A stretch of 64,000 nucleotides of DNA from Streptomyces sp. cg36 (GTDB lineage: Bacteria > Actinomycetota > Actinomycetes > Streptomycetales > Streptomycetaceae). Each line of letters starts with the position of its first letter. Position 1 is the first letter of the stretch. Below, in pieces: positions 3,001-51,415 of this stretch. The stretch spans positions 8,523,501 through 8,587,500 of the forward strand of contig NZ_CP163520.1 in NCBI RefSeq assembly GCF_041080675.1, given 5' to 3'. The notes beneath the pieces were generated by a model. That model saw nothing but the letters and a program-made list of their open reading frames with translations, searched no databases and was not told the origin of the DNA. The position numbers were made by a program, and so were the translations under genes.

Positions 3001-3733
3001 AACCACCGCCACCCCGCCTGTCTCGGCGGAGGACCGCGGGCGGTTCCCCGCATCCCTGTACGGCGGCGCGACGATATCGAAGCCTGACGAGGCCCGAGTC
3101 GGCACCGGCACACTGACGCTGAACGGGAGCACCGGATTCGCACAGACCAGCACGGTGCCGCTGGACACCGGACAGAGCTTCACCCTCGCCGGGTGGGCGC
3201 AGTCGGCCGCGCCACCGAACCGCGACATGACGGTCCTCTCCCTGGGAGGCGACAAGAACCCCGCAGTCACGGTGCGCTGGAAGTTCCTGCGCACCAGCGA
3301 CGATCCGGTCAGCCCCGGCAACATCGGGGAGTGGCAGGTGGAAACGGTGGACAATGCCGGCAAGCACGCCGTGGCGATGCATACCTTTGCCAGTTCGCAG
3401 GACATCGGAAGCTTCTGGAACCACTTCGCGGTGACCTATGACGCCTTCTCCAACGAGTTGGCGCTGTATGTGAACGGGCAGCGGGAGAACGAAATCTGCC
3501 CCGACGCCGACACCGGCTGCACCCCGCATATCTCTTTCACCTCGGCGGAGCAGCCGCTGAAGGCCACCCAGGAGCTGCGGTTGGGCCGCAACCCGGCCAC
3601 TGTCGCCAACGCGGACTGGTTCTCCGGCCAGATCGACGATATCTGGGCCTACCAGGGCGTCCTCAGCCCCGCCGGCATCGCACAGCTGGCACAGGGCGAC
3701 GAGCTCGACATCACCACCGGCCCCGCCAGCTAG
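2..3733 (+). CDS. Secreted LamG-domain protein, 5' end outside window
   Basis: The reading frame is open from base 2, before the first internal ATG at base 17, so the gene starts upstream of the window. At least 1238 residues are present. Around residues 130-310 (from base 17) lies a DNRLRE-like region of the type found in Streptomyces surface proteins. A middle part carries Ig/fibronectin-like sequence ending in a YYFNVR segment. Three concanavalin/LamG-like domains follow at about 600-750, 815-990 and 1050-1225. Each has the FTLSAWV / WTHLxGVYD / LYVNG / DDIRVYDR signature. LamG domains bind glycans or proteins outside the cell; no catalytic motif is visible. The gene lies just upstream of the RHS gene on the same strand, a common Streptomyces arrangement, so a role at the cell surface with the RHS toxin is inferred. 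The N-terminal signal peptide cannot be seen. Confidence 0.8.
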   Translation, partial: QLKLGMSSADLMVRKETDGSLSMVDKAGGGTVFQAPRPMMFDSSPGLTDGSGMPATSTARLKTLAASKGAGLAVEAPVDPSAHAAPVEVAVPADQKSLVLTPDQKLLDAPGTVFPVMIDPDVRAPRAVGWAGISRYWSDTSFWKFSGDFGMGYCGDEGRCVPADVKRVLYAIPVRGQAFVGKHIQDAKFRAWNSHSWSCTAQPVDLFLTGRINSSSTWNNSSSMGSSSFWNKYLATRNDARGFDGCGAGYTEFEPAGLRDAVQAVADRNAVDLTLGLKAGSESASAYGQWKRFTDDGYLQVFYNLPPRQPAMKDLSSQPGGVCSSTSTPITKAPQLYARVSDPDQDSIGVQFALVWTNGSWYSTGGANTPPASSTFRASGSTFSLLLPSSVVPQNKAVGWAVRAWDGAEWGPWSWDGAPTGCYFTIDTSKPAGPVTTSLDFPGSHDGQAPLAWTDGVGRYGTFTFTTTSKDAVAYQWGMDQQPTAAREVATSGGAARSVRMLMPSEGPHILTARAKDAAGNAGETTTYYFNVRRGQAPRAGWAMNDTAGSAGLASGPAANFPATVTGGTLGAAGHTGTAVAVTGETAPDGTPKNYLSTQSAVVETDQSFTLSAWVNTADPSLQFQSALSQSSVHQAAVTLGLSAGKWTIKAPTADHATDYSWYTASSDVAPVANQWTHLAGVYNAPAKTLTLYVNGNPSTPTQGVSLWSARGAMDFGRLRWRDTYTDPWKGSLDDIRVYDRALSLAETTDLAAYRQVTSGTGAKAVWSLDESGTTANGTSETSDLTVTGAVQRGIQDGIEDKAARFGADAYATTTRPQVDGTRSFSVSAWVRRPALAAGDSTAKVAISQPGVHQPEFSLYYSPSYKKWIFGRSTEDSTADTLVRAVQPACTGAVNGLPCFGETSNEWTHLVGVSDAVTHKIRLYINGYLVDESDYAQATPWATTKPLMIAGLSREGTPAEFLGGDIDDVRVFDRIVTEDEARTMVQQRPQLAARWRFDAATTATPPVSAEDRGRFPASLYGGATISKPDEARVGTGTLTLNGSTGFAQTSTVPLDTGQSFTLAGWAQSAAPPNRDMTVLSLGGDKNPAVTVRWKFLRTSDDPVSPGNIGEWQVETVDNAGKHAVAMHTFASSQDIGSFWNHFAVTYDAFSNELALYVNGQRENEICPDADTGCTPHISFTSAEQPLKATQELRLGRNPATVANADWFSGQIDDIWAYQGVLSPAGIAQLAQGDELDITTGPAS

Positions 3734-3750
3734 GCCGCCATGCCGCCGTT

Positions 3751-3781
3751 GCGGGGCTGCCCATCCCGTGGGCAGCCCCGC
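3751..3781 (+). terminator. Rho-independent-type hairpin after the LamG gene
   Basis: A perfect 13-bp stem (GCGGGGCTGCCCA / TGGGCAGCCCCGC) with a 5-base loop lies 18 bases after the LamG stop codon. There is no long T tract, as is usual in actinomycetes. It separates the LamG gene from the RHS gene. Confidence 0.75.
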
Positions 3782-3885
3782 ACCCCGGCCCCCTCACTTG
3801 ACCTCCTCTTCACACCTGCCTGGCCCGTGGCCGGCACGATCAGCCGCACCCGGCGCTGAACCGGTGCGGCGGGGGATTGCTTACG

Positions 3886-6800
3886 ATGCGCATCACACCA
3901 GCCCGCCGAGCGGGCACCCGCACGACGGCACGAGTTGCCGCCGTCCTATCGGCCGCCCTGGTAGCAGGACTGCTACAGGCCCTGCCCGGCCCACAAGCCG
4001 CAGCCGAATCGAACCTTCCCTCAGCGTCATGGAAGGAAAAGCCGGTCAAGGGTACGAACACCGAGGCCAGGCCACGCCCTGCGGACAAGACGGTCTCCAA
4101 ACCGCGCAGCCCGAAGACGGCCTGGCCCAAGGAAGCCACCGCCAGCGTCAGTCTGCCGGCTGCGGCTGGCCCCGCACTCACCGCCAAGACGTCCGGCGGC
4201 TCCGGCTCTGGAGGCGAGGTGAGGGCCGGTTCCCTGCCGGTGTCGCTGGCCGCGGTGGCCAACGCCCCGCTCGCCCCGCGCCAGCAGGCCGCACCGCCGT
4301 ATGCCGTAGGGCAGACGGCTGCCACCGTCACAGTGCTGGACCGCAAGGCCGCCCAGAAGGCCGGAGTGGACGGCATCCTGCTGACCCTTGCCCCCAACAG
4401 CGGAAACGCCGCCAGGAAGGTACGGGTCAGTGTCGACTACGACGCATTCGCGGACGCGGCAGGAGCCGGATACGGGCAACGGCTGCGCTTGGTCCAGCTG
4501 CCTGCCTGTGTCCTGACCACACCCAGCAAGCCGGAGTGCCGTACCTCCACTCCGCTGGTGGGCCGCAACGATGCGGAGAAGCACACGGTGACCGCCGACG
4601 CGGTCGCCATCGCGGGCACTGGCACTGCGTCGAAGTCCGCGCCCTTGGCTGTCGGGGCCCAGGCGCTGGCGGGTGGGGCGACCGTGCTCGCCGCGACGGC
4701 AGGATCCGCCAGCCCGTCGGGTGACTACAAGGCGTCCCCTCTGTCGGCGGCGTCGACCTGGAGCACATCGCTGAACAGCGGTTCGTTCTCCTGGTCGTAC
4801 AAGATGCCGGTTCCGCCAGTACCGACAGGGCTGACGCCCACGGTGGGCCTGTCCTACAACTCGGGAGAGATCGACGGGCGTACCGCGAACACCAACAACC
4901 AGGCTTCTTGGGCCGGTGACGGCTTCAGCATCGCGCCCGGCTTCGTCGAGCGGTCCTACAAACCGTGCGGTGACGACGGGGTGAAGACCGACGGAGTCGA
5001 GCCGGGGGACATGTGCTGGGCGTATGACAACGCCACCATCAGCTTCGACGGGCACTCCGGCGAACTGATCCCGATCAACGACGAAGAATGGCGGATCAAG
5101 GGCGACGACAACACCCGGGTCTTCCACTGGCGCCAGGACGACCGCGGCAATGGTGACAACGACGGCGAGTACTTCCGCGCCACCACCTCTGACGGCACCC
5201 GCTACTACTTCGGCTACAACCGGCTGACCAACTGGACTGCGGGCAAGCCGGAGACCAAGTCGGTGGAGAGCGTGCCGGTCTTCGGCAACAACAGCGGCGA
5301 GCCGTGCAACAAGGCGACATTCGCGGAATCATGGTGCCAGCAGGGCCGGCGCTGGAACCTCGACCTGGTCATCGACGCCAACGGCAACGACATGACCTAC
5401 TGGTACAAGCAGGAGGCCAACACCTACGGCCGCAACCTCAAGGAGACCGACGGCACCCCTTATGTCCGCGCCTCGGTCCTGGACCACATCGAGTACGGCC
5501 AGCAGCTCAAGGACCTCTACTCCGACACCGTCAAGCCGATGGCCCGGGTGGACTTCACCACCGCCGAACGCTGCCTGGAGACCAACACCGCACTGTGCGA
5601 CCCGGCGAAGATCGACACCAACCGGCAGTACTGGTACGACACCCCCTGGGACCAGAACTGCAACAGCGGAACCAAGTGCGACAAGGGGCGCCTGTCGCCC
5701 ACGTTCTGGGGCCGCACCCGTCTGGCCAACGTCACCACCAAGACCCTGCAGACCGACAGCAGCTACAAGCCGACCGACTCCTGGGACCTGCACCACAAGT
5801 GGGGCACCGCCGACTTCGACTACCAGCTCCTGCTCGACTCCATCCAGCACACCGGACTCGCCGGAGCCACCCCCGTCAAGCTGCCCCCGACGACACTCTC
5901 CTACAGCGCGCAGATCGGACGCCTGGACAAGAGCGGTGACGGCCGACCGGGCTTCTACAAGCAGCGGCTGCGCACCGTGCTCGACGAGTCGGGCGGCCAA
6001 CTGGACGTGAACTACTCGCAGGCGGCCTGTTCCTGGGACAGCCTGCCCAGCCCGCAGTCCAACACCTCACGCTGCTACCCGCAGATGTACCAGGCCGGCT
6101 ACACGGATCCAGTAACCACAGAGTGGTTCAACAAGTACGTCGTGGACTCGGTCATCTCCTCCGACCGCACCGGCGGCGCTGTCAGCACCCAGACCAACTA
6201 CACCTACTTCGACGGCGGTGCATGGGCGTTCGACGACACCGAGGGCATCACCAAGGAGAAGCTCAAGACCTGGTCGCAGTGGCGCGGCTACGGCAAGGTC
6301 CGCGTGCAGACCGGCAGCAGCCAGGCCATGTCCACCCAGGCCGACCACTACTTCCTGCGCGGCATGGACGGTGACCGAACCGATCCCACCGACAAGACCA
6401 AGACTCGCAGCGTCACCGTCTCGGACGGTGAGGGCTCCAAGCTCACCGACGACGAGGCGTGGGCCGGGTTCGAATACCGCAGTGAGACGTTCGACAAGCC
6501 GGGCGGGAAGACCCTGTCCAAATCGGTGAACAAGCCGTGGAAGAAGGAGACAGCAAAGCGGGTCCGCAGTTGGGGCACCTCCACCGCCAACCTCACCGGT
6601 ACCAGCCAGACCCGTAGCTTCACCTACTTGACTACTGACGACAAGTGGCGCGAAACCCGCGGCAACACCACCTTCGACGACCTCGGTCGGCCTGTCGCAG
6701 TCGAGGACTTGGGCGATCCCTCGGTCGCGGCCGACGACAAGTGCACCCGCACCACCTACGCCGACGACGGATGGATCCGGACCGCCGCGATCCACACCGA

Positions 6801-9800
6801 AACCATCGCGGCCGACTGCGCTGCGACCCCAGACAGAGACACCCACGGTGACGGCACCTCAGTAATCCTGGCCGACACCCGCACCCGCTACGACGGCCAG
6901 GCATACGGCGCCGCGCCCACCAGGGGCCTGGTCACCATGACCGAGACCCTCAAGTCCCGCAGCGGCAACACCGCCACCTACGTCGACAAGACCACCAGCT
7001 ACGACGCCTACGGGCGGCCCTTGACCGTCACCGCGCTGGCCTCCACCAGCGTCTTCGACCCCAACGACACTGCCAAGGCACCCGCCACCACCCCCGCAAC
7101 TGCCCCTCCCACTACAACGACCGTCTATACCCCGGCGACAGGCCGGCCCACCAAGGTGGCGGTCACCAGCCCGCCCGCCACCGCCGGCAACGCAGCCACA
7201 TCCCAGACCAGCACGTCCTACCTCGATCTGCTGCGCGGCCTTCCCTACATCAGCACCGACGCCAACAACCTGCGCACGGACACTGAATACGACGCGCTCG
7301 GACGCCCGCTGAAGGTGTGGAAACCCAACCGCTCCAAGCTGAACAACCAGTCGCCGAACCTGCAATTCCGCTACACCGACGCCGAGAACACGATTCAGTC
7401 CGTCGCCACTCTCACGCTGAACAACGACGGTTCATCCGACACCAGCTACACCCTGTACGACGGCCTCGGCCGCGTCCGCCAGACCCAGGCCCCCGGCCCC
7501 GACGGCGGCCGCATCCTGACCGACACGTTCTACGACGAACGCGGCCAGGTCCGCCTCGCCTACGCCCCCTACCACAACACCGCCGCCCCCAGCGGCACCC
7601 TCTTCACCGTGGTAGACGCCGACGGCATCGAGACCCAGACCGCCACCGAATACGACGGCCTGGGGCGGCCCGTCAAGTCCACCCTGCTCTCCGGCAACGG
7701 CACGGGTATCCCGCTGGCCACGACCACCACGGTCTATGGCGGCGACCGCGTCACCGTCACCCCCCCCAAGGGTGCCACCCCCACTACCACCCTCAGCGAC
7801 GCCCAGGGGCGCACGACCGAGCTGCGTCAGTACCAGGCCACCAACCCGGCCGGTCCCACCGGCCCGTACGACAGCACCACCTACCGCTACGACGTGGCCG
7901 GGCACATGACCGGGCTGACCGGCCCGCAGGGCGCCCAATGGTCCTGGACCTACGACCAGCTCGGCCGCCAGACCAAGGCAATGGACCCGGACAGCGGCAC
8001 CACCAGCAAGACCTACAACGACCGAGGCGAACTCGCCACGACCACCGACGGCCGCGGCAAGACCATCGCCAACGTCTACGACAACCTCTCCCGGCTCCTG
8101 GAGACACACGAGGGCACGGCCAACGGTCCGCTGCTGACTTCCCAGACCTGGGACAAGATCAAGGGACAACTGGCCACCTCCACCCGCCACGTCAACATCG
8201 GCGGCACGGTCTACCCGTACACGACAACCTTCAACACCTACGACCCGCTGTACCGACCCACCAAGACCACCCTCACCGTCCCTTCCATCCCGGGCCAAGA
8301 GGCCCTGGCCGGTGACTACTCCACCAGCACCTCCTACAACCCGGACGGCACCGTCCAGGCCACGTCGTACCCGGCTGCGGGCAGTCTGCCCGCCGAGGTG
8401 GTCGCCTTCACGTACAACAAGCTCCACCAGACCACCGCCGCCAGAAGCAACCTGTCCACCTACCTCGCGGACCAGATCTACACCCTCACCGGCAAGCCCT
8501 ACCGCTCCACCCTCAATGCCGGCGGCGTGAACACCACCATCACCAACGGCTACGAACAAGGCACCCAGCGCCTCTCGGTCAGCCGCACCGACACCGAGAA
8601 CACCGCCGTACCCGCCCGCGCCAACGCCTACAAGTACGACGAGGCCGGGAACGTCACCGAACTGAGCGACGTCTCCCGCACCGGCACGGACCGCCAGTGC
8701 TTCCAGTACGACTACCTCGCCCGCCTCACCGAGGCTTTCACCCCCACCGACCCGTCCTGCCCCACCACCCCGGACGGCAGCAAGCTCGGCGGACCCGCCC
8801 CCTACTGGTCCAGCTACACCTACAACACCGACGGCACCCGCAAGACCGAAACCCAGCACAACACCACGGGTGACACGTCCAAGGATCAGACCCGCACCTA
8901 CACCTACCCCACCGCAGGCGCGGCCCACCCGCACTCCCTGCTGTCCGCCAGCACCGCAACCGGCGCCACCGACCCGGTCACCGACTCCTACGACTACGAC
9001 CAGGCCGGCAACACCACTCGCCGCACCCTCAACCCCAACGCTGCTCTCTCCAGCAACCAGGCCATGGCCTGGGACACCGAAGGCCACCTGGCCAGCGTCA
9101 CCGACACCGTCCAGACCAAAACGGGCACCTCGACGGTGACCACGAAGAAGACCACCGACTACGTCTACGACCCCAGCGGCAACCGCCTCACGGGCCACAC
9201 ACTCGACACCGCCAACCCCGCCGACGAGAACACCACCCTCTATCTCGGCGCAACCGAACTGAATCTCGCCAAGGGCGCGGCCAAGCCGACGGCCACCCGC
9301 TACTACCCGCTCGGCGCGGCCACCGCCGTCCGCACGAACGACAACAAGGTCACCTTCCAGGCCACCGACCACCATGGCACCGCCGACATCAGCATCAACG
9401 CCACCGACGGCACCGCCACCCAGCGCCGCACCACCCCCTTCGGTGAGGACCGCGGCACCCCGCCCGCCACCTGGGCCGGTACCAAGGGCTTCGTCGGCGG
9501 AACCATGGACACCCAGACCGGACTCACTCACCTGGGCGCCCGCGAATACGACCCGTCACTGGGCCGTTTCCTCAGCGTCGATCCGGTCCTTGCAGCTGAC
9601 GACCCGCAGTCGCTCGACGGCTACGCCTACAGCAACAACAACCCGGCGACCCTGAGCGATCCGAGCGGGCTCAGGCCGGAGGGAGGCTGCGGTGGGGCCT
9701 CGTCGTTCTGCGAGACCATCGACGGCAAGGTCCACATCGAGTCCTGGTCGAAGGACGACGACGCCTGGACCCTCGACGACCACAAGACCAAAAAGACGTG

Positions 9801-39841: not shown

Positions 39842-40179
39842 AGCCAGCCTCCGGCACCCGGCGAATGGTCACGGGAGACGGGGAGTTCGGACTGCACGAC
39901 CCCGGGAACGGCCGGTGCACCCCTGGACGGGTTCTTCACCTCGTCGGTGAACATGTTCGCCAGGTCGTTGCGCGCGTTGTACAGACCCAGCGCGACCACC
40001 ATCAGCAGCAGAGCACCGATCCCCGCCTTGAGACTGAACCGCTGGATCATGATGACGACGACGAGGCAGATCAGCCCGGCCTGCAGGCCCTTGGTCGCCC
40101 ATTGCTGGAACATGCTGATCCACGAGTTGCCAAGGTCGTCGAGCCGCCCGGCGAGCACCAGACCGTGCACGGTGTTCAT
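39838..40179 (-). CDS. VirB2-like or accessory small membrane protein
   Basis: 113 residues from ATG 40179, overlapping the TcpC-like stop by 4 bp. It has an amphipathic N-terminus (DDLGNSWISMFQQWATKG), two hydrophobic spans (LQAGLICLVVVIMIQRF and GIGALLLMVVALGLY) and a short C-terminal tail. Two spans and this size fit VirB2-type pilins or TcpD/E-like channel parts; the sequence does not decide between them. Confidence 0.6.
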   Translation of the reverse strand: MNTVHGLVLAGRLDDLGNSWISMFQQWATKGLQAGLICLVVVIMIQRFSLKAGIGALLLMVVALGLYNARNDLANMFTDEVKNPSRGAPAVPGVVQSELPVSRDHSPGAGGWL

Positions 40180-41117
40180 CGGCCACCCCCGTCCTGGGCA
40201 GCCCCGGACTCCAGCGCGGCAACTTCCCACCTGGTTGACCGGGCCGTGAGCGTGAGCCCGTACGCCAGCGGCCACCGGCCGGCCGCGTCCCGGGCTTCCA
40301 CCCGGACCAGCACACGCACCGTCGTGCCGTCCTCCGCCACCTGCTCCGCAGCCGCCGCCTTCTCGACAGCCAGCACCTGCTTGACGGAGACCGACCGGTA
40401 CGGGGCAGGGGTGACGGCGGTGAGCTTCACGCCGGGAGCGAGGTAGCGGTCGACCCCCCCGGCTCCCGTCAGATAGGCGGTGAGGAACTCGCCGACCGCG
40501 GACGACAGATGCCCCTCGGGGACGGTCATGGCGTACGACGAGGATTTCGGCACCTCGGCCCGGGCTGGGCCGGCCACCACGCCGGGAGCCCCGGTCACCG
40601 TGAACGACGAGCCCGTACGGTCCGACGCCACCGACACGGCGTAGTACCGCACCGACCCGTTAGGCAACTGCGCAGCCACCGTCACCGCCCACGCACCGTC
40701 CGCGCGCTGCGTGCTGCGCACCGCCGATACGGACGGGGACGCTGACTGCGCATCAGCCGCCGGGTTGGGCAGATCGACGTCGGGCGCCATCGACCGCACC
40801 AGGCGCGCCTGCGCACTGGTCTCGTCGTCCGCGCTGCTGCGCAACCAGGCGCTCACGAACACCTGCGCATAGCCGCCCGGGTCGATGGGGGCCGCCGCGG
40901 CGGGCACGGCAGTGGACTTGGCTGCGGGGGCTGCCTCGACCGTGGCCGGGATGGAGGCGACGGCGACGCCCAGGGCAACGGGGCCGGCTGCGATGGCGGT
41001 CCAGACCGCCACGCGTGAGAAGCGGACGCGGCGGCGCATCGCCTCTAGCCGGGCGCCGGCCGCCAGCGGAGCAGCGGCCTCGCTCTGTGAGGCCTGCTTG
41101 CCAGGAGACATGGTCAA
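40176..41117 (-). CDS. TcpC/VirB8-like conjugal transfer protein
   Basis: 313 residues (an in-frame ATG two codons later, at 41111, is also possible). A cytoplasmic N-terminus leads into one membrane helix (VAVWTAIAAGPVALGVAVASI). The extracytoplasmic part has two NTF2-like units, as in TcpC (PF12642): one with YAQVFVSAWLRSS and VSAVRSTQRADGAWAVTVAAQL, the second with AVGEFLTAYLTGAGGVDRYLAPG and VRVLVRVEARDAAGRWPLAYGLTLTAR. TcpC is the VirB8 counterpart of Gram-positive conjugation systems. It is the first gene of the operon. Confidence 0.82.
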   Translation of the reverse strand: MTMSPGKQASQSEAAAPLAAGARLEAMRRRVRFSRVAVWTAIAAGPVALGVAVASIPATVEAAPAAKSTAVPAAAAPIDPGGYAQVFVSAWLRSSADDETSAQARLVRSMAPDVDLPNPAADAQSASPSVSAVRSTQRADGAWAVTVAAQLPNGSVRYYAVSVASDRTGSSFTVTGAPGVVAGPARAEVPKSSSYAMTVPEGHLSSAVGEFLTAYLTGAGGVDRYLAPGVKLTAVTPAPYRSVSVKQVLAVEKAAAAEQVAEDGTTVRVLVRVEARDAAGRWPLAYGLTLTARSTRWEVAALESGAAQDGGGR

Positions 41118-45398: not shown

Positions 45399-45971
45399 CT
45401 ACTGTTCGTAGGCCCAGGCGCGGCCCGTCTGGCGGTACTCCTCGACCGGGATCGGCTGGACGCCAGTGCGCATCCTCGCGGTGTAGAGGAGTCCGTCGAG
45501 GTGGTCGATCTCGTGGTGGATGAGCCGGGCGAGCCCGCGCTCGTACACCGTGGTGACGATGGCACCGTCGAGCGCGGTGGATTCCACGGTGATCCGCAGT
45601 GGGCGGGGGACCATGCCCCGAACATCGAAGAAGGACAGGCAGCCCTCGTACTGCTCGTCCATCTCCTCGGAGGCCGCGATGATGCAGGGGTTGAGGAGTA
45701 CGATCGGCTCCGCGCCTCCCGGGGCGGGTCGTACGGCGGCGGCCGCGCGGGCGATGCCGATTTGCGGGGCCGCCAGCCCCATGCCCTTGCCGCTGAAGTC
45801 GTGTGCCTGGGCGATGCGGTCCATGGCGTCGGCCAACTTCTCGACGATCCGTGTCGCAGCGCTGCAGTCGGCGGGCAGATCGAAGGCGCCTGCGGACTCG
45901 GCGAGGATGCCGGCGCCGTGCTGGACGACTCCGAGGTCTCGCATGCGCTGGCTGGGCTGCACCTCGATCAC
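45399..45971 (-). CDS. def: Peptide deformylase
   Basis: 190 residues, GTG start at 45971 in a GTGA overlap with the regulator gene. All three family motifs are intact: motif I GMGLAAPQ (residues ~63-70), motif II EGCLSF with the metal-binding cysteine, and motif III HEIDHLDG with the two metal-binding histidines and catalytic glutamate. The enzyme removes the formyl group from new proteins. As an extra copy in accessory DNA next to a regulator and a lasso cluster, it may be a resistance copy or have been recruited for peptide processing; neither is shown. Confidence 0.93.
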   Translation of the reverse strand: MIEVQPSQRMRDLGVVQHGAGILAESAGAFDLPADCSAATRIVEKLADAMDRIAQAHDFSGKGMGLAAPQIGIARAAAAVRPAPGGAEPIVLLNPCIIAASEEMDEQYEGCLSFFDVRGMVPRPLRITVESTALDGAIVTTVYERGLARLIHHEIDHLDGLLYTARMRTGVQPIPVEEYRQTGRAWAYEQ

Positions 45972-46939
45972 CGCAACTCTCCCTGGTTGTTGTCGGGTTC
46001 GGGCCTGGCCCGGAACTTCCATTCCAGACGGTAGCGGGCGTGGAGGGCGGGCGTTGAGGTGGACCAGGAGAAGATGCGGGTGGGCCCGTCGTCCAGGCGG
46101 TTGGGGGCAGTCCGCAGCGGGATCTGCTCGGCGGTCATGGAGGTCTCGGTGCCCCACACCATCGGGTCGAGCGCGACGGGGAAGGCGAGGGTGACTTCCA
46201 GGTGCTCGGTGGGCAGGCGCACCGCGCGCTGGAACCACCGCCCCCACTTGTAATCGCTGACCGAGTATGCGTACTCGATCCACACCGACTCGCCGGGGTA
46301 GAGGGGGAAGCGGCCCTGCTCGTTGTCGAACAGGAGCCAGATCTCCTTGAACGCGTCGCGGTCGTGCTTGGTCTCCCACGCCATCACCTCGCCCCGGCAC
46401 GACGCGGTCAGGGCCAGCTCTTCCCACCGCAGAGGGTTCTCGCGGTAGTGGGCGTTGGAGCGCTCCGGCTCGCCCGGGTAGCGGTCGACGGAGATCCGGA
46501 TCAGATAGCGGGTGACCGGCTCGATGCCGGTGTTGCGCAGCAGGCGGCGCATGGTGAGCCGGTACATCGCTCCGTCGTAGTCCAGGCGGGCCGTGTCGTG
46601 CTCGACCACCAGCGCGGAGCCCGTGGCGTACGGCTGCTCGGGCCGGTGCGGCACCGGCAGGACTGCGGGCTGGTGGGCGCGGGCCTTTGCCGTCTCGTAC
46701 TCGCACCAGCGTTTCCAGATCGCCTTGCCCGCCTTCAGCGTCTCGTCCGCGCGGCGGGCGAAGTCCTCGGACGGCTTGGTCCGCCCGGCCTCCATGTGGC
46801 TGACGTAGGAGGGGGTGTAGCCCATGGCGGCGGCGAGCGCGTTCTTGGCCAGCCCCCTCACCTCCCGCCAGTAGGCGACCTCCGCCGCGAAGTACTCGAT
46901 GGCCTGCTCGACGGTGATGTCGTCGTGGTGGGTGTCCAT
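45968..46939 (-). CDS. XRE-type helix-turn-helix regulator
   Basis: 323 residues from ATG 46939. The N-terminal HTH is clear: VAYWREVRGLAKNALAAAMGYTPSYVSHMEAGRTKPSEDFARRAD (about 20-70). The C-terminal ~200 residues form a separate, probably ligand-sensing or effector, domain (RYLIRISVDRYPGEPERSNAHYRENPLRWEELAL, WIEYAYSVSDYKWGRWFQRAVRLP) that recurs in Streptomyces HTH proteins of unknown signal. It is divergent from the lasso precursor and followed by the deformylase gene. A perfect inverted repeat in the shared upstream region (46976-47002) is its likely operator. Confidence 0.82.
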   Translation of the reverse strand: MDTHHDDITVEQAIEYFAAEVAYWREVRGLAKNALAAAMGYTPSYVSHMEAGRTKPSEDFARRADETLKAGKAIWKRWCEYETAKARAHQPAVLPVPHRPEQPYATGSALVVEHDTARLDYDGAMYRLTMRRLLRNTGIEPVTRYLIRISVDRYPGEPERSNAHYRENPLRWEELALTASCRGEVMAWETKHDRDAFKEIWLLFDNEQGRFPLYPGESVWIEYAYSVSDYKWGRWFQRAVRLPTEHLEVTLAFPVALDPMVWGTETSMTAEQIPLRTAPNRLDDGPTRIFSWSTSTPALHARYRLEWKFRARPEPDNNQGELR

Positions 46940-46975
46940 CAAAGTCCCTGCCCCGGATGCCGGTTGAGTGCATGA

Positions 46976-47137: not shown

Positions 47138-47263
47138 ATGGAGCACACCACCAACGAGGTCTACCAGGCGCCCGTCGTGCTGGACGCCGGTGAGGTCACC
47201 GCGGTGACGCTGGGCACCAACAGCTTCGACACCGCCGACGACACCGAGTACAAGAACGCCTGA
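47138..47263 (+). CDS. Lasso peptide precursor (A)
   Basis: 41 residues from ATG 47138, with GGAGG 8 bases upstream. A longer open frame upstream lacks leader features. The leader has the YxxP pattern for the RRE (Y9-Q-A-P12), then VVLDAGEV, and the conserved threonine at position -2 (T24, followed by L25). The predicted 16-residue core is GTNSFDTADDTEYKNA. Gly1 can form the macrolactam with Asp9 (9-residue ring), since positions 7 and 8 are Thr and Ala. The ring contains Asp6-Thr7, a candidate aspartimide site for the methyltransferase of this cluster. Residues 10-16 would form loop and tail. Confidence 0.88.
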   Translation: MEHTTNEVYQAPVVLDAGEVTAVTLGTNSFDTADDTEYKNA

Positions 47264-47417
47264 CCCGCGATCCGCCGGAGACGGGAGAGGAGGTCCTCGA
47301 ACCGCCCCGGCACCAGGAGGCGCTGGTCCTGCCCGTTCCTTGCCTTCGGCACGGAAGACAAGGGGACCGGCGCCTTCGCCTTCTCACACAGACCACGCAC
47401 GGGAGACGAGGGCAGCG

Positions 47418-49256
47418 ATGCGGTGGAGTGCAGGATGGTACGGCGGCACCGGGCCCGAACGGCGGCCCGCCGCCGGCCGGGCGGTACCCGGCCTGGACAC
47501 GACATGGACCAGCGGGTGGCCCGCGGCCCGGGTCCGCGCCACCGGCGACGGCCCGGTGGCGCTGGCGGTGATCGGAGAGTGCGGCGCCGACGAGACCCAG
47601 CTCCATCAAGCGCTGGGTCTCGTGCGGGCCAAAGGGTGGCGGGCGCTGACCCGCTGGCCCGGCTCGTACCTCGTCATCGCCCGCAGCGGCCCCACGCTGG
47701 CCGTGATCGGCGATCTTGCCGGGCAGCATCCGGTGTACCACCGCAACGAGGCAACTGGCACCTGGTGGGCGAGTGCAGCTTCCGCGCTCGCGGCGCTGGA
47801 CGGGGCGCCCGTCGATGCCGCCGCGCTCGCCGCCCATCTGGCCTTCGGGCAACCCGACGTGCTCGCCACGCGGAGCCTGTTCCGCGACGTGCAGCGGGTG
47901 CCGGGCGGGCATCTACTGCTCGTCAGCCCGAAAGGGGCAACGGTCGAACGGTATGAGCCGGTCGCGTACGCACCCGTCGAGCTGCGCCAACAGGCCCCGG
48001 TGGTGCGCGCCGCGCTCACCGAGGCGGTCGCCGCCCGGATCGACGGCCGTCCCGTCAGCGCGGATCTCGCAGGACTGGACTCCACCACACTCGCCTGCCT
48101 GGCTGCCCAGCGCGGCAGAGTGACCGCGGTGACGTTCGCCGACCAACGGCTGCGTGACGACGACCTCACGTTCGCGGCCCGCACCAATCAAGCCATACCG
48201 GGCCTGGCCCACCACACGGTTCCCGGCGCGGTAGGCACCGTGTACTACGCCGGGCTGGACGACCCGGCGGCATCGCCGCTGACCGACGCCCCGAACGCCT
48301 ACGTGGTCACCGCCTCCATCAAGCGAGCCGTCCTGGACACCGTCGCCGCGAACACCCCAGTCCCGGGGGTGCACTTCACCGGCGCGGCCGGGGACGCCGT
48401 CCTGTCCGCCCCCTCGTCCTACCTGGCGGATCTGCTGCGCGAGCGGCGCCACCGCCGGGCCTGGCAGCATGCCCTCGCCCACGCCCGGCTGCGGCGCACC
48501 TCTGCCTTCGCCGTCCTCGCCCGCGCCCGGCCCGCATCCAAGGTCGCCCTGGCCGAGGCATGGTGGCAGACGGCCGCCGACCTGCGACAGCCCGCCCGGG
48601 ACTGGATTCCCCAGGCCCAGCGCCCACTCGCCTGGACGCCGTTGCTGGCCTCAGCGGACTGGATGACCCGCGATGTCCGCGCCGCTCTCGCCGACGCCGT
48701 CGACCGGGCGGCGGCTGCGCTGACCGACCCTCCGGCCCGGCTGGCAGACTGGTCCGACCGCCAGGACCTGGCCCGGGTCGGCGCGAACACAACCGGATGG
48801 CGTGCGCTCGCGCACGCCGAGTACGGCATCGACCTGGCCGCGCCGTTCCTGGACAACGAGGTGATCCGGGCCTGCCTCGAGGTCAGCGCCGACCAGCGTG
48901 GGGCGCCCGGGCAGTACAAGCCGCTACTGGAGGCGGCGTTCGAGGCCAGCGGCGTACTGCCCGGCTTCGTCCTGGCCCGCACCACGAAGGGCGGCTTCAA
49001 CGCCCTCGCCTACGCCGGCTTGCGGGAACACGCCCCGGTCCTGACCGCCTTGCTCGGCCCGTCGTCACGGCTGGCCGCCCTCGGGCTGGTCACCCAGCAG
49101 CCCGTCGCGCAGGTTCTCGCGCGGGCCACGGCCGGGCAACCAACCGCCCAGGGCGCCCTGCACCTGGCGGTGGCCGCCGAGGTGTGGCTGCGCCAGCTCG
49201 CCGACACGCCCACAACGTGGTGGGAAGAGGTGAACCCGCATGTGGAGGCTGCGTGA
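47418..49256 (+). CDS. Lasso cyclase, asparagine-synthetase-like (C)
   Basis: 612 residues from ATG 47418. The N-terminal ~190 residues resemble the class II glutamine amidotransferase fold without its catalytic cysteine, as in all lasso cyclases (LVIARSGPTLAVIGDLAGQHPVYH). The C-terminal asparagine-synthetase domain has the ATP-binding PP-loop as SADLAGLDSTTLA (near 215), one glycine shorter than SGGxDS. Later motifs include GDAVLSAPSSYLADLL and AAPFLDNEVIRACL, and ARTTKGGFNA. The enzyme adenylates the ring Asp/Glu side chain and joins it to Gly1. It follows the precursor by 154 bases and overlaps the RRE gene. Confidence 0.92.
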   Translation: MRWSAGWYGGTGPERRPAAGRAVPGLDTTWTSGWPAARVRATGDGPVALAVIGECGADETQLHQALGLVRAKGWRALTRWPGSYLVIARSGPTLAVIGDLAGQHPVYHRNEATGTWWASAASALAALDGAPVDAAALAAHLAFGQPDVLATRSLFRDVQRVPGGHLLLVSPKGATVERYEPVAYAPVELRQQAPVVRAALTEAVAARIDGRPVSADLAGLDSTTLACLAAQRGRVTAVTFADQRLRDDDLTFAARTNQAIPGLAHHTVPGAVGTVYYAGLDDPAASPLTDAPNAYVVTASIKRAVLDTVAANTPVPGVHFTGAAGDAVLSAPSSYLADLLRERRHRRAWQHALAHARLRRTSAFAVLARARPASKVALAEAWWQTAADLRQPARDWIPQAQRPLAWTPLLASADWMTRDVRAALADAVDRAAAALTDPPARLADWSDRQDLARVGANTTGWRALAHAEYGIDLAAPFLDNEVIRACLEVSADQRGAPGQYKPLLEAAFEASGVLPGFVLARTTKGGFNALAYAGLREHAPVLTALLGPSSRLAALGLVTQQPVAQVLARATAGQPTAQGALHLAVAAEVWLRQLADTPTTWWEEVNPHVEAA

Positions 49257-49536
49257 CGGGGCTCATCCGGTTCTCACCGAAGAGGGCGGTGCGATCCTCA
49301 ACGAGCGCACCGGCCGCTGGTCCTACCTCACCCCGACCGCCTCGGCCGCGGTAATGCTCCTGCTCGCCTCCACCAGCGAGCAGCAGGCCGCCGACCGCTT
49401 CGCCGAGCGGTACGGCATTCCCTGCAAGCAGGCCACCGCCGACGTCCGCACCGTCGCGGACGCGCTCATCGCCCAGAGCCTCGCCCACGACGGGCCAGAA
49501 CCGGCACAGCGGCCGCGCCGGAGGTGGCGAAGGTGA
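49240..49536 (+). CDS. Lasso RRE protein, PqqD-like (B1)
   Basis: 98 residues, overlapping the cyclase end by 17 bases. The sequence LRDGAHPVLTEEGGAILNERTGRWSYLTPTASAAVMLLLASTS is a PqqD-type RiPP recognition element: a three-stranded sheet and helices that bind the leader YxxP region. Residues 48-85 continue the helical part (AADRFAERYGIPCKQATADVRTVADALIA). The basic tail RPRRRWRR may be linker only. It delivers the precursor to the leader peptidase. Confidence 0.9.
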   Translation: MWRLRDGAHPVLTEEGGAILNERTGRWSYLTPTASAAVMLLLASTSEQQAADRFAERYGIPCKQATADVRTVADALIAQSLAHDGPEPAQRPRRRWRR

Positions 49537-49955
49537 CCAGTATGGAGGCGTACTCCACCGTCCGCACTGGCGCGTATCGCGAGCGGCTCGCCGCTGCGAC
49601 CGGCCTCGCGCTCGCCCTGGCGCTGCTCCACCTGCCCTTCCGATACACCGTCGGCACCGCCCGCCTCGCCCGGCGCATCGGGCGCCGCCCACTCACCCAC
49701 GAGCGGGCCCAAGCGCTGGTCGCCGCCGTACGGCACACCGCCCGCTGGTGGCCCGGCAGAGCCGCCTGCATGGAGACCTCGCTCGGCGCGGTCCTGGCTG
49801 CGGCCCTGCTCGGCCGCCGCCTCAACTGGTGCCTGGGCGCCCGCTTCGCGCCGCCTCCCACCGAGTACCACGCCTGGACCGAACTGCCCGCCGGAGACCC
49901 GGTCGGCGAATACACCGCGGCAGGGTGGCACCACCACAGCGCCCTGACGATCTGA
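49533..49955 (+). CDS. Lasso leader peptidase, transglutaminase-like (B2)
   Basis: 140 residues from GTG 49533, in a GTGA overlap with the RRE gene. The catalytic cysteine is Cys79 in RAACMETSLGAVLAAALLG. The histidine is His113 in TEYHAWTEL, followed by an acidic region for the third residue. Both match the B2 leader peptidases. An N-terminal hydrophobic stretch (ATGLALALALLHLPFRY) is usual. It cuts the leader after T-L to free Gly1 for cyclisation. Confidence 0.9.
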   Translation: MTSMEAYSTVRTGAYRERLAAATGLALALALLHLPFRYTVGTARLARRIGRRPLTHERAQALVAAVRHTARWWPGRAACMETSLGAVLAAALLGRRLNWCLGARFAPPPTEYHAWTELPAGDPVGEYTAAGWHHHSALTI

Positions 49956-50046
49956 CCGGTCCGGCGCCCGCCGGGTGCGTGTCCCTCACCCGCCCGGAGC
50001 AGTTGAAGAACACGAGTGCCACCACCGCACCCCAAGGAGTAAAGCC

Positions 50047-51072
50047 GTGACCGCCGTCCCGCTGGCCGCCGAGACCGTCCCCGAGCGCCACTACACCCAC
50101 CATGAAGGCCGCGGCGCCACAGTGCACCGCTCCAACCCCGTCGTAATCCACCGCGAGCTGACCACCCTCGATGTCCGGCCGGGGATGAACGTCGCGGAGT
50201 TCGGCACCGGCTCGGGCTACTCCGGCGGCCTACTGGCCGAGCTTGTCGGCCCAAGCGGCACGGTGACCAGCCTCGACATCGACCGCTACCTGAGTGTGTG
50301 GGCCAACCTCATCCACTTCGAGCGCGGCCTGGCCAACATCCGCTGCTTCACCGCCGACGGCACTGTCGGCTTCCCCGAACGGGCCCCGTACGACCGGATG
50401 GTGGCCTGGTGCACCCCGCCACTGCTGCCCAAGACCTGGGTGGACCAGACGGTCGACGGCGGACTGATCGTCGCCCCGCTGCCGATCGCCGCCGTGCCCA
50501 ACATGACGGTGGTCGCCAAGATCCGTGTCATCGGCGGGCAGCCTGTGGTGGAGGCCGTGTTCACCGGCGGCTACATCGAGGCCACCACCTCACCCAAGGA
50601 CAACCTCGATCTGCCGGGCCGCTGGGTGGACTGGGAGAACCGCATCCCCGCCCCGTCCTGGATCTCCATCGCCTGGCGCGAGCGCGACAACTGGCGGCAC
50701 ACCGGCGCCCGCACTGCCCTCAAACTGCTGCTCAAGAACGCGCACACCGAGCCGTACGACGGGCCCGAAGCCGACTGGCCCTCCTGGCGGACCTACGCGG
50801 CCGCCACCGGCGGCCCGCAGCTGACCATGGCCGGGCTCAGCCCCGACCTGTGGGCAATCGGGCACTCCACCCCGACCACGGCCGCCGTGCTCCAGCAGGA
50901 CGCCACGATCATCGCCGACGCCCCCGACTCCCCGTCCCTCGCCGTGCTACGCGGCTGGCTGGAGGGATGGGAAAGCGCGGGGCGCCCGGCCCCCGAGACC
51001 TACACCCCGGCCCTCATCCGCGACGAAGACAGCCAGGCCATCAGCGGCTGGAACCTGCGCCTGACCCGGTGA
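50047..51072 (+). CDS. PIMT-like O-methyltransferase of the lasso cluster
   Basis: 341 residues from GTG 50047, with AAGGAG 7 bases upstream; an earlier in-frame start lacks such a site. It belongs to the protein-L-isoaspartate methyltransferase family: HRSNPVVIHRELTTLDVRPGMNVAEFGTGSGYSGGLLAELVGPSG is the SAM-binding motif I region, and TVTSLDID the acidic end of strand 2. A C-terminal extension beyond residue ~215 is present, as in the methyltransferases of aspartimide lasso clusters. The known reaction there is methylation of an Asp side chain of the folded lasso, which then closes to an aspartimide. The target here would be Asp6 of the core. Confidence 0.88.
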   Translation: MTAVPLAAETVPERHYTHHEGRGATVHRSNPVVIHRELTTLDVRPGMNVAEFGTGSGYSGGLLAELVGPSGTVTSLDIDRYLSVWANLIHFERGLANIRCFTADGTVGFPERAPYDRMVAWCTPPLLPKTWVDQTVDGGLIVAPLPIAAVPNMTVVAKIRVIGGQPVVEAVFTGGYIEATTSPKDNLDLPGRWVDWENRIPAPSWISIAWRERDNWRHTGARTALKLLLKNAHTEPYDGPEADWPSWRTYAAATGGPQLTMAGLSPDLWAIGHSTPTTAAVLQQDATIIADAPDSPSLAVLRGWLEGWESAGRPAPETYTPALIRDEDSQAISGWNLRLTR

Positions 51073-51093
51073 CCCGCGCCTGGGGCGCGGACC

Positions 51094-51127
51094 GGGGGCC
51101 TCCAAGCCAGTCGGCTTGGAGGCCCCC
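51094..51127 (+). terminator. Strong hairpin terminator closing the lasso operon
   Basis: A perfect 15-bp stem (GGGGGCCTCCAAGCC / GGCTTGGAGGCCCCC) with the loop AGTC, 21 bases after the methyltransferase stop. It marks the end of the A-C-B1-B2-methyltransferase unit. Confidence 0.85.
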
Positions 51128-51415
51128 GCTGGATCAATCGTTGCTACCGGCGGCATCGTCGAGGTCAACGACACGGGTCGCGCAGCGGGCGCAGGCCGCC
51201 CGCCGGCCCTCGGTGTACATCAACGTGATGGCGTACACCGCTGCTGGTGCGAGGACGGAACGGCCAGAAGAATCGCGGGCGCCCCCTTGCGTGCGCAATC
51301 TGGACACCTTCTTGGAAAGGGAGCCCGCGGTTTCCGGGGCCTATGAATTCCCCCGGGCCGTACCGCCGCCGGGAGATAGACGGGTAGCGTCGGTAGGAGC
51401 GACGAGGAGGTCATC

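What the first reader, a model, noticed from the sequence alone, without database searches (positions are those of the whole stretch)
47138..51072. Lasso-peptide cluster with a PIMT-like methyltransferase: predicted aspartimide lasso peptide
Precursor, cyclase, RRE, leader peptidase and an L-isoaspartate-methyltransferase homologue lie in one short operon closed by a strong terminator. In the known aspartimide lasso peptides (cellulonodin-2, lihuanodin) such an enzyme methylates an Asp of the folded lasso, which then closes to an aspartimide. The predicted core GTNSFDTADDTEYKNA has Asp6-Thr7 inside a Gly1-Asp9 ring, as the chemistry needs. The product itself seems undescribed to me.
Basis: partly seen in the sequence, partly recalled or inferred. 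Interest (0 to 1): 0.87.

Follow-up and report, generated by a model that had tools for sequence, protein, structure and literature searches.

The report
Aspartimide lasso-peptide operon, known kind
This Streptomyces operon very probably makes a knotted "lasso" peptide whose ring carries an enzyme-made aspartimide; it is real and was correctly read, but it belongs to a small, already described family and shares its predicted product with other sequenced strains.

Summary
Window 47138-51072 carries a lasso precursor, cyclase, RRE, leader peptidase and a PIMT-type methyltransferase (MT), followed by a 16-bp hairpin without a T-tract. The core GTNSFDTADDTEYKNA has Asp-Thr-Ala-Asp at positions 6-9, the group-1 signature of aspartimidylated lasso peptides such as cellulonodin-2 and lihuanodin (PMC13001092). 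The MT has the family's C-terminal extension and WXXXGXP motif. In a quick tree it sits with lasso-linked MTs, apart from 11 housekeeping PIMTs and 12 own-genome paralogues. In 54 related clusters Asp6 is present in 38 of 39 with an MT and 1 of 15 without, though few independent events underlie this. It is not new in kind: papers report 48, 58 and 67 such clusters, and three other database precursors carry the identical core. Two less expected side results: this cyclase clade has lost one residue of its SGGxDS ATP loop, and some relatives depart from the published D(T/S)AD rule (DTVD, DTDD, DSSD, DKVD) while keeping Asp6 and Asp9.

The parts
47138..47263 (+). lasso precursor, 41 aa (25-aa leader, 16-aa core)
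   Evidence: NF033521 lasso leader over its cut-off; Shine-Dalgarno read from sequence; 26 further homologues by protein search
47138..47212 (+). leader MEHTTNEVYQAPVVLDAGEVTAVTL: YxxP motif, Thr at -2
   Evidence: sequence; same features in relatives
47213..47260 (+). core GTNSFDTADDTEYKNA; predicted Gly1-Asp9 macrolactam, predicted aspartimide at Asp6-Thr7
   Evidence: DTAD 6-9 as in PMC13001092 section 8; Gly1 and Asp9 in 43 of 43 and Asp6 in 42 of 43 unique cores
47418..49256 (+). lasso cyclase (asparagine-synthetase-like), ATP loop shortened to DLA-GLDS
   Evidence: NF033561 340.2 bits; PF00733; motif alignment
49240..49536 (+). RiPP recognition element (PqqD-like)
   Evidence: PF05402 over cut-off; NF033530 below cut-off
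49533..49955 (+). leader peptidase B2 (transglutaminase-like Cys protease); GTG 49533 start with GTGA overlap likely, ATG 49542 possible
   Evidence: NF033537 56 bits, PF13471 (scanned from 49542)
50047..51072 (+). PIMT-type O-methyltransferase with C-terminal extension, motif WESAGRP (WXXXGXP)
51093..51128 (+). 16-bp hairpin after the MT, possible terminator without T-tract
   Evidence: RNA fold; not listed by the terminator scan

Best explanation
The operon makes a group-1 aspartimidylated lasso peptide (lassimiditide). The RRE binds the leader and B2 cuts after Leu(-1). The ATP-using cyclase joins the Gly1 amine to the Asp9 side chain around the threaded tail. The MT then methylates the Asp6 side chain of the folded lasso, and the Thr7 backbone nitrogen displaces methanol to give an aspartimide in the ring. 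Gene content, motifs and the MT's family are shown here; cleavage, threading, methylation and aspartimide formation are inferred from cellulonodin-2 and lihuanodin.
For: Gene set matched by curated models (one of two RRE models is below its cut-off). DTAD at core 6-9, WXXXGXP and C-terminal extension as in the characterised pair (PMC13001092 sections 8 and 11). MT placed with lasso-linked MTs, apart from housekeeping PIMTs and own paralogues. Asp6 in 38 of 39 clusters with an MT and 1 of 15 without: the nearest MT-less clade keeps Asp9, and five of its eight cores the ADDT[E/Q]Y stretch, but seven of eight carry Asn6-Asn7 (the grouping has SH-aLRT 91). The order precursor-cyclase-RRE-B2-MT recurs in relatives. 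The MT model aligns over its whole length to Thermotoga PIMT 1dl5, which has a C-terminal extension too (rmsd 7.5).
Against: No chemistry. The Asp6-MT link rests on about three independent events (1 on well-supported branches), too few for a sign test. Exceptions: L020 has an MT but core Asn6-Asp7; L132 has Asp6 without an MT nearby. MTs 49-55% identical occur in Actinoplanes and other genera with no lasso gene found beside them, so MT ancestry alone does not fix the substrate. WXXXGXP is not lasso-specific (9 of 12 own paralogues). The cyclase ATP loop deviates from SGGxDS.
Confidence: 0.86

Rival explanations
1. The MT is a housekeeping or repair PIMT that happens to lie beside a plain lasso cluster; the product is an unmodified lasso.
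For: Same Pfam family as repair PIMTs; no gene in this genome reaches the TIGR00080 repair-PIMT cut-off, so a repair role could be unfilled; in some Streptomyces loci the MT is found without a cyclase (L019, L025, L036, L125).
Against: Tree placement apart from housekeeping PIMTs; 76.0 bits against the TIGR00080 cut-off of 159.05; C-terminal extension; recurrent operon position; Asp6 follows the MT.
Confidence: 0.04
2. The MT acts on Asp6 but the mature product is the isoAsp form or a cycling Asp/aspartimide mixture, not a stable aspartimide.
For: Some other RiPP PIMTs end at isoAsp (PMC10787088 passages), and the lihuanodin and cellulonodin-2 aspartimides hydrolyse in Tris buffer at pH 6-9 (PMC13001092 section 8).
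Against: Thr7 is present, which in lihuanodin steers hydrolysis back to Asp and allows re-modification; the aspartimides are stable in water.
Confidence: 0.2
3. The ring closes on Asp10 instead of Asp9, making the Asp6 site part of a 10-residue ring.
For: Position 10 is Asp in 30 and Glu in 2 of 43 unique cores.
Against: Asp9 is invariant in 43 of 43 unique cores; Asp9 closes the ring in both characterised relatives; 10-residue lasso rings are not known to me (recalled).
Confidence: 0.03

Closest known systems
Cellulonodin-2 (TceM) and lihuanodin (LihM), group-1 lassimiditides
   Same: Lasso genes plus PIMT homologue; DTAD at core 6-9; WXXXGXP; C-terminal extension
   Different: Core and tail (DDTEYKNA) are of a Streptomyces/Pseudonocardiaceae lineage; cyclase ATP loop one residue short (the loops of the two characterised cyclases were not looked at). 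No direct sequence comparison with TceM or LihM was made
Group-2 lassimiditides (modified Asp predicted in the loop; PMC13001092 section 8, PMC10787088 passages)
   Same: Lasso cluster with PIMT homologue
   Different: Here the candidate Asp is in the ring at position 6
Albusnodin/ikarugamycin-family macrolactam cyclases (NF033561)
   Same: Window cyclase scores 340.2 bits, over the cut-off of 300
   Different: The family name is an annotation; albusnodin is acetylated (recalled), and none of the five operon genes is an acetyltransferase
Graspimiditides and imiditides/pamtides
   Same: Related MT; TIGR04188 (graspetide type) and TIGR04364 hit the window MT, both below cut-off
   Different: The operon has no ATP-grasp gene. 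Ten of the genome's 12 other strong PCMT genes were scanned: all score best to TIGR04188, one over its cut-off, and all 12 branch apart from the window MT

Membership tests
Lasso peptide | precursor with lasso leader (YxxP, Thr -2) and Gly1 with Asp/Glu at 7-9 | tested here: met
Lasso peptide | cyclase, RRE and B2 peptidase genes together | tested here: met
   (RRE by PF05402; NF033530 below its cut-off)
Lasso peptide | threaded macrolactam | not testable with these tools
   needs MS, carboxypeptidase or NMR
Group-1 lassimiditide | D(T/S)AD at core positions 6-9 | tested here: met
   core read from sequence; motif from PMC13001092 section 8
Group-1 lassimiditide | PIMT homologue with C-terminal extension and WXXXGXP | tested here: met
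   341 aa, WESAGRP; model. The motif is not exclusive: 9 of 12 own paralogues have it, and 16 of 22 plus 7 of 10 lasso-linked MTs in the tree set
Group-1 lassimiditide | MT groups with lasso-linked MTs | tested here: met
   quick tree, (careful tree not finished; TceM and LihM themselves not included)
Group-1 lassimiditide | methylation of Asp6 of the threaded lasso and aspartimide in product | not testable with these tools
   no chemistry available
Housekeeping repair PIMT | scores over TIGR00080 cut-off and groups with such enzymes | tested here: not met
   76.0 bits against 159.05; separate branch

The most novel reading that the evidence does not exclude
The window belongs to a distinct Streptomyces/Pseudonocardiaceae lassimiditide lineage marked by a cyclase whose ATP loop has lost one residue (DLA-GLDS), a D9-D10-T11-[E/Q]12-Y13-K14 tail that is common but not fixed, and Asp6/Asp9 with relaxed positions 7-8. 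Its cyclase may activate Asp9 by altered ATP chemistry, and the aspartimide may work as a reversible switch. MT-less sister peptides carry Asn6-Asn7 and could reach the same succinimide by spontaneous deamidation.
Probability: 0.15. Interest if true: 0.55.

Novelty: new member of a known kind. Interest (0 to 1): 0.32.

Why it matters
Only two aspartimidylated lasso peptides had been characterised at the time of a March 2026 review (PMC13001092 section 8). A Streptomyces operon with a well-placed MT offers a testable third lineage, and the MT-less sister clusters with Asn6 are a natural control for what the MT requires. Relatives with Lys7, Val8 or Asp8 would test the view that Thr7 keeps the lasso threaded by steering hydrolysis back to Asp.

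Tried and rejected
Housekeeping-PIMT reading: rejected by the tree. 'Undescribed core': the exact string is in no held paper text (full-text search for three fragments), but three other database proteins carry it, so it is not unique. Papers seen: PMC13001092 abstract, sections 8 and 11, and passages; PMC10787088 passages; PMC13352647 and PMC9266682 passages; others as listings with abstract starts only. For the cyclase loop, a search found 24 papers with at least two of three lasso terms; the 15 listed had no occurrence of 'SGGLDS'.

First pass of the Asp6/MT table gave 0 of 15 MT-less clusters with Asp6. A wider check found L132, an MT-less cluster with D6-K7-A8-D9 that my precursor rule had missed, and showed that L148's region ends 332 bp after the cyclase, so its MT status is unknown; the corrected table is (38 of 39; 1 of 15). 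All dropped rows except L148 have Asp6, and all but L112 and L148 have an MT. Of 54 regions without an MT, 16 gave a core by my rule and L132 one by the wider check; the other 37 gave none or have another precursor type and were not counted. Six of the 54 end less than 3.2 kb after the cyclase. Of 20 MT-bearing regions in that set 17 gave a core. Three cores (L020, L054, L060) were called by eye. Independent pairs: 1 on supported branches, 3 on all, so no significance is claimed; the Fisher value printed ignores kinship.

Neighbour-gene clustering gave an apparently conserved divergent regulator, but the group mixes different HTH proteins and was not pursued. The Foldseek 'pdb' search did not run; only the VIA second look did, and its rows barely cover the C-terminal domain except 1dl5.

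Full report
What is there. The window (G000:C1:8523501-8587500) lies near the end of an 8,595,631-base contig of a 9.02-Mb genome. The genus is Streptomyces by inference: genome G130, marked 'same genus', has a cluster on a contig of the same length (45,081) and with the same core as the named S. hirsutus record L017. The operon runs 47138-51072 on the + strand: precursor, cyclase, RRE, B2 peptidase, MT. Lasso leader NF033521, cyclase NF033561, B2 NF033537 and Pfam PqqD and PCMT are all over their cut-offs; the NCBIfam RRE model NF033530 is below its own. A 16-bp hairpin at 51093-51128 follows the MT; it has no T-tract and the terminator scan did not list it.

The precursor. Leader MEHTTNEVYQAPVVLDAGEVTAVTL, core GTNSFDTADDTEYKNA. 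YxxP, Thr(-2), Gly1 and Asp9 fit a lasso; Asp6-Thr7-Ala8-Asp9 is the group-1 lassimiditide motif (PMC13001092 section 8). A protein search found 27 precursors including itself; three others have the identical core. Over 77 precursors, from MT-bearing loci and from that search (MT linkage of the searched proteins was not checked, and some clusters are in twice), 43 cores are unique: Gly1 and Asp9 in 43 of 43, Asp6 in 42, Thr7 in 32, Ala8 in 32, Tyr13 in 39. The 6-9 motif is DTAD in 27 of 43; the rest are DSAD, DSSD, DSQD, DTDD, DTVD, DSVD, DTQD, DTED, DKVD and, in L020, NDAD. So Asp6 and Asp9 are held and positions 7-8 are looser than the published D(T/S)AD.

Does Asp6 go with the MT? From a cyclase search of 392 genomes (61 with a match) and a genome-contig scan with the MT alignment (54 loci; these were found through the MT, so all bear one), clusters with an intact cyclase and a called core gave 54 rows: MT present 39, of which Asp6 in 38; MT absent 15, of which Asp6 in 1. 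The nearest MT-less clade (grouped with the window's clade at SH-aLRT 91) keeps the ring-closing Asp but has Asn6-Asn7 in seven of eight rows (L128 GSASANNADDTEYWQ; L130, L131, L135, L140; also L139 and L142 with NNPDHT). Exceptions: L020 (S. sp. DH12), where a near-copy of that strain's other MT (L021) lies behind a different lasso cluster with an ABC transporter (recognised by eye) and a core with Asn6-Asp7; and L132, Asp6-Lys7 without a nearby MT, in a genome (G330) that has an MT-bearing cluster elsewhere. The tree needs only about three changes of MT state, so this is a consistent pattern, not a significant independent test.

How it most likely works. B2 with the RRE removes the leader, the cyclase closes Gly1 on Asp9 around the tail, and the MT esterifies Asp6 in the folded lasso; Thr7's backbone nitrogen attacks to give an aspartimide. 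Each chemical step is inferred from TceM and LihM as described in PMC13001092. Thr7 predicts regioselective reopening to Asp and renewed modification.

What is less ordinary. In an alignment of 102 lasso-type cyclases of 450 aa or more (some clusters in twice), 55 have SGG in the ATP loop (12 MT-bearing, 43 without an MT in the region); 38 have DLA-GLDS, one residue shorter: the window and 36 other MT-bearing rows plus L112, whose MT place is beyond its contig; 9 have other forms, 7 of them DL-GGLDS without an MT. Conservation across the clade argues against simple inactivation, but the effect on ATP use is untested. One literature search gave nothing on it.

Verdict. The operon is a new member of a known kind, with an identical predicted core in other strains. 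The interest lies in the comparative material rather than in the product.

Noticed in passing
47418-49256 and relatives: The cyclase ATP loop SGGxDS is one residue short (DLA-GLDS) in the MT-linked Streptomyces/Pseudonocardiaceae clade (38 of 102 rows); seven MT-less cyclases have DL-GGLDS.
   Followed up: partly
L020 (cyclase about 3300-5100, MT 8001-8987) and L021, Streptomyces sp. DH12: A near-copy of the lasso MT sits behind another lasso cluster with an ABC transporter, whose core has Asn6-Asp7: a natural transplant of the MT.
   Followed up: partly
L045 (Actinosynnema pretiosum) and L041 (Actinoalloteichus spitiensis), just upstream of the cyclase: Cores GIMKFDKVDDTQYKHS and GIMKFDSVDDTQYKHS: in L045 Lys7 replaces the Thr7 thought to keep the lasso threaded.
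   Followed up: no
L128, L130, L131, L135, L139, L140, L142: MT-less sister lasso clusters carry Asn6-Asn7 at the aspartimide position and might form a succinimide by deamidation.
   Followed up: no
L132 (G330:C26): MT-less lasso cluster with core GWLSKDKADDTEYWY (Asp6-Lys7), in a genome with an MT-bearing cluster elsewhere: possible action in trans, or a retained Asp6.
   Followed up: partly
L039, L040, L043, L046, L047, L048, L050: MTs 49-55% identical to the window's occur in Actinoplanes relatives and Saccharothrix without a lasso gene found in the fetched stretch; their substrate is unknown.
   Followed up: partly
L019, L025, L036, L049, L125: Streptomyces loci with the MT (whole or partial), four of them with a stub of the B2 gene, and no cyclase found: probably decaying clusters.
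   Followed up: no
40179-41111 (-) and the contig end: A TcpC-like conjugation protein lies near the operon, and the operon is about 21-25 kb from the end of the 8.596-Mb contig: possibly a mobile or terminal chromosome region.
   Followed up: no
45402-46942 (-): A helix-turn-helix regulator and a peptide deformylase gene lie divergently upstream of the precursor; many relatives have other HTH-type regulators there.
   Followed up: partly
G000 C1, 22 places: The genome has 12 PCMT genes over 78 bits besides the window's MT; the 10 scanned score best to the graspetide-type model TIGR04188.
   Followed up: partly
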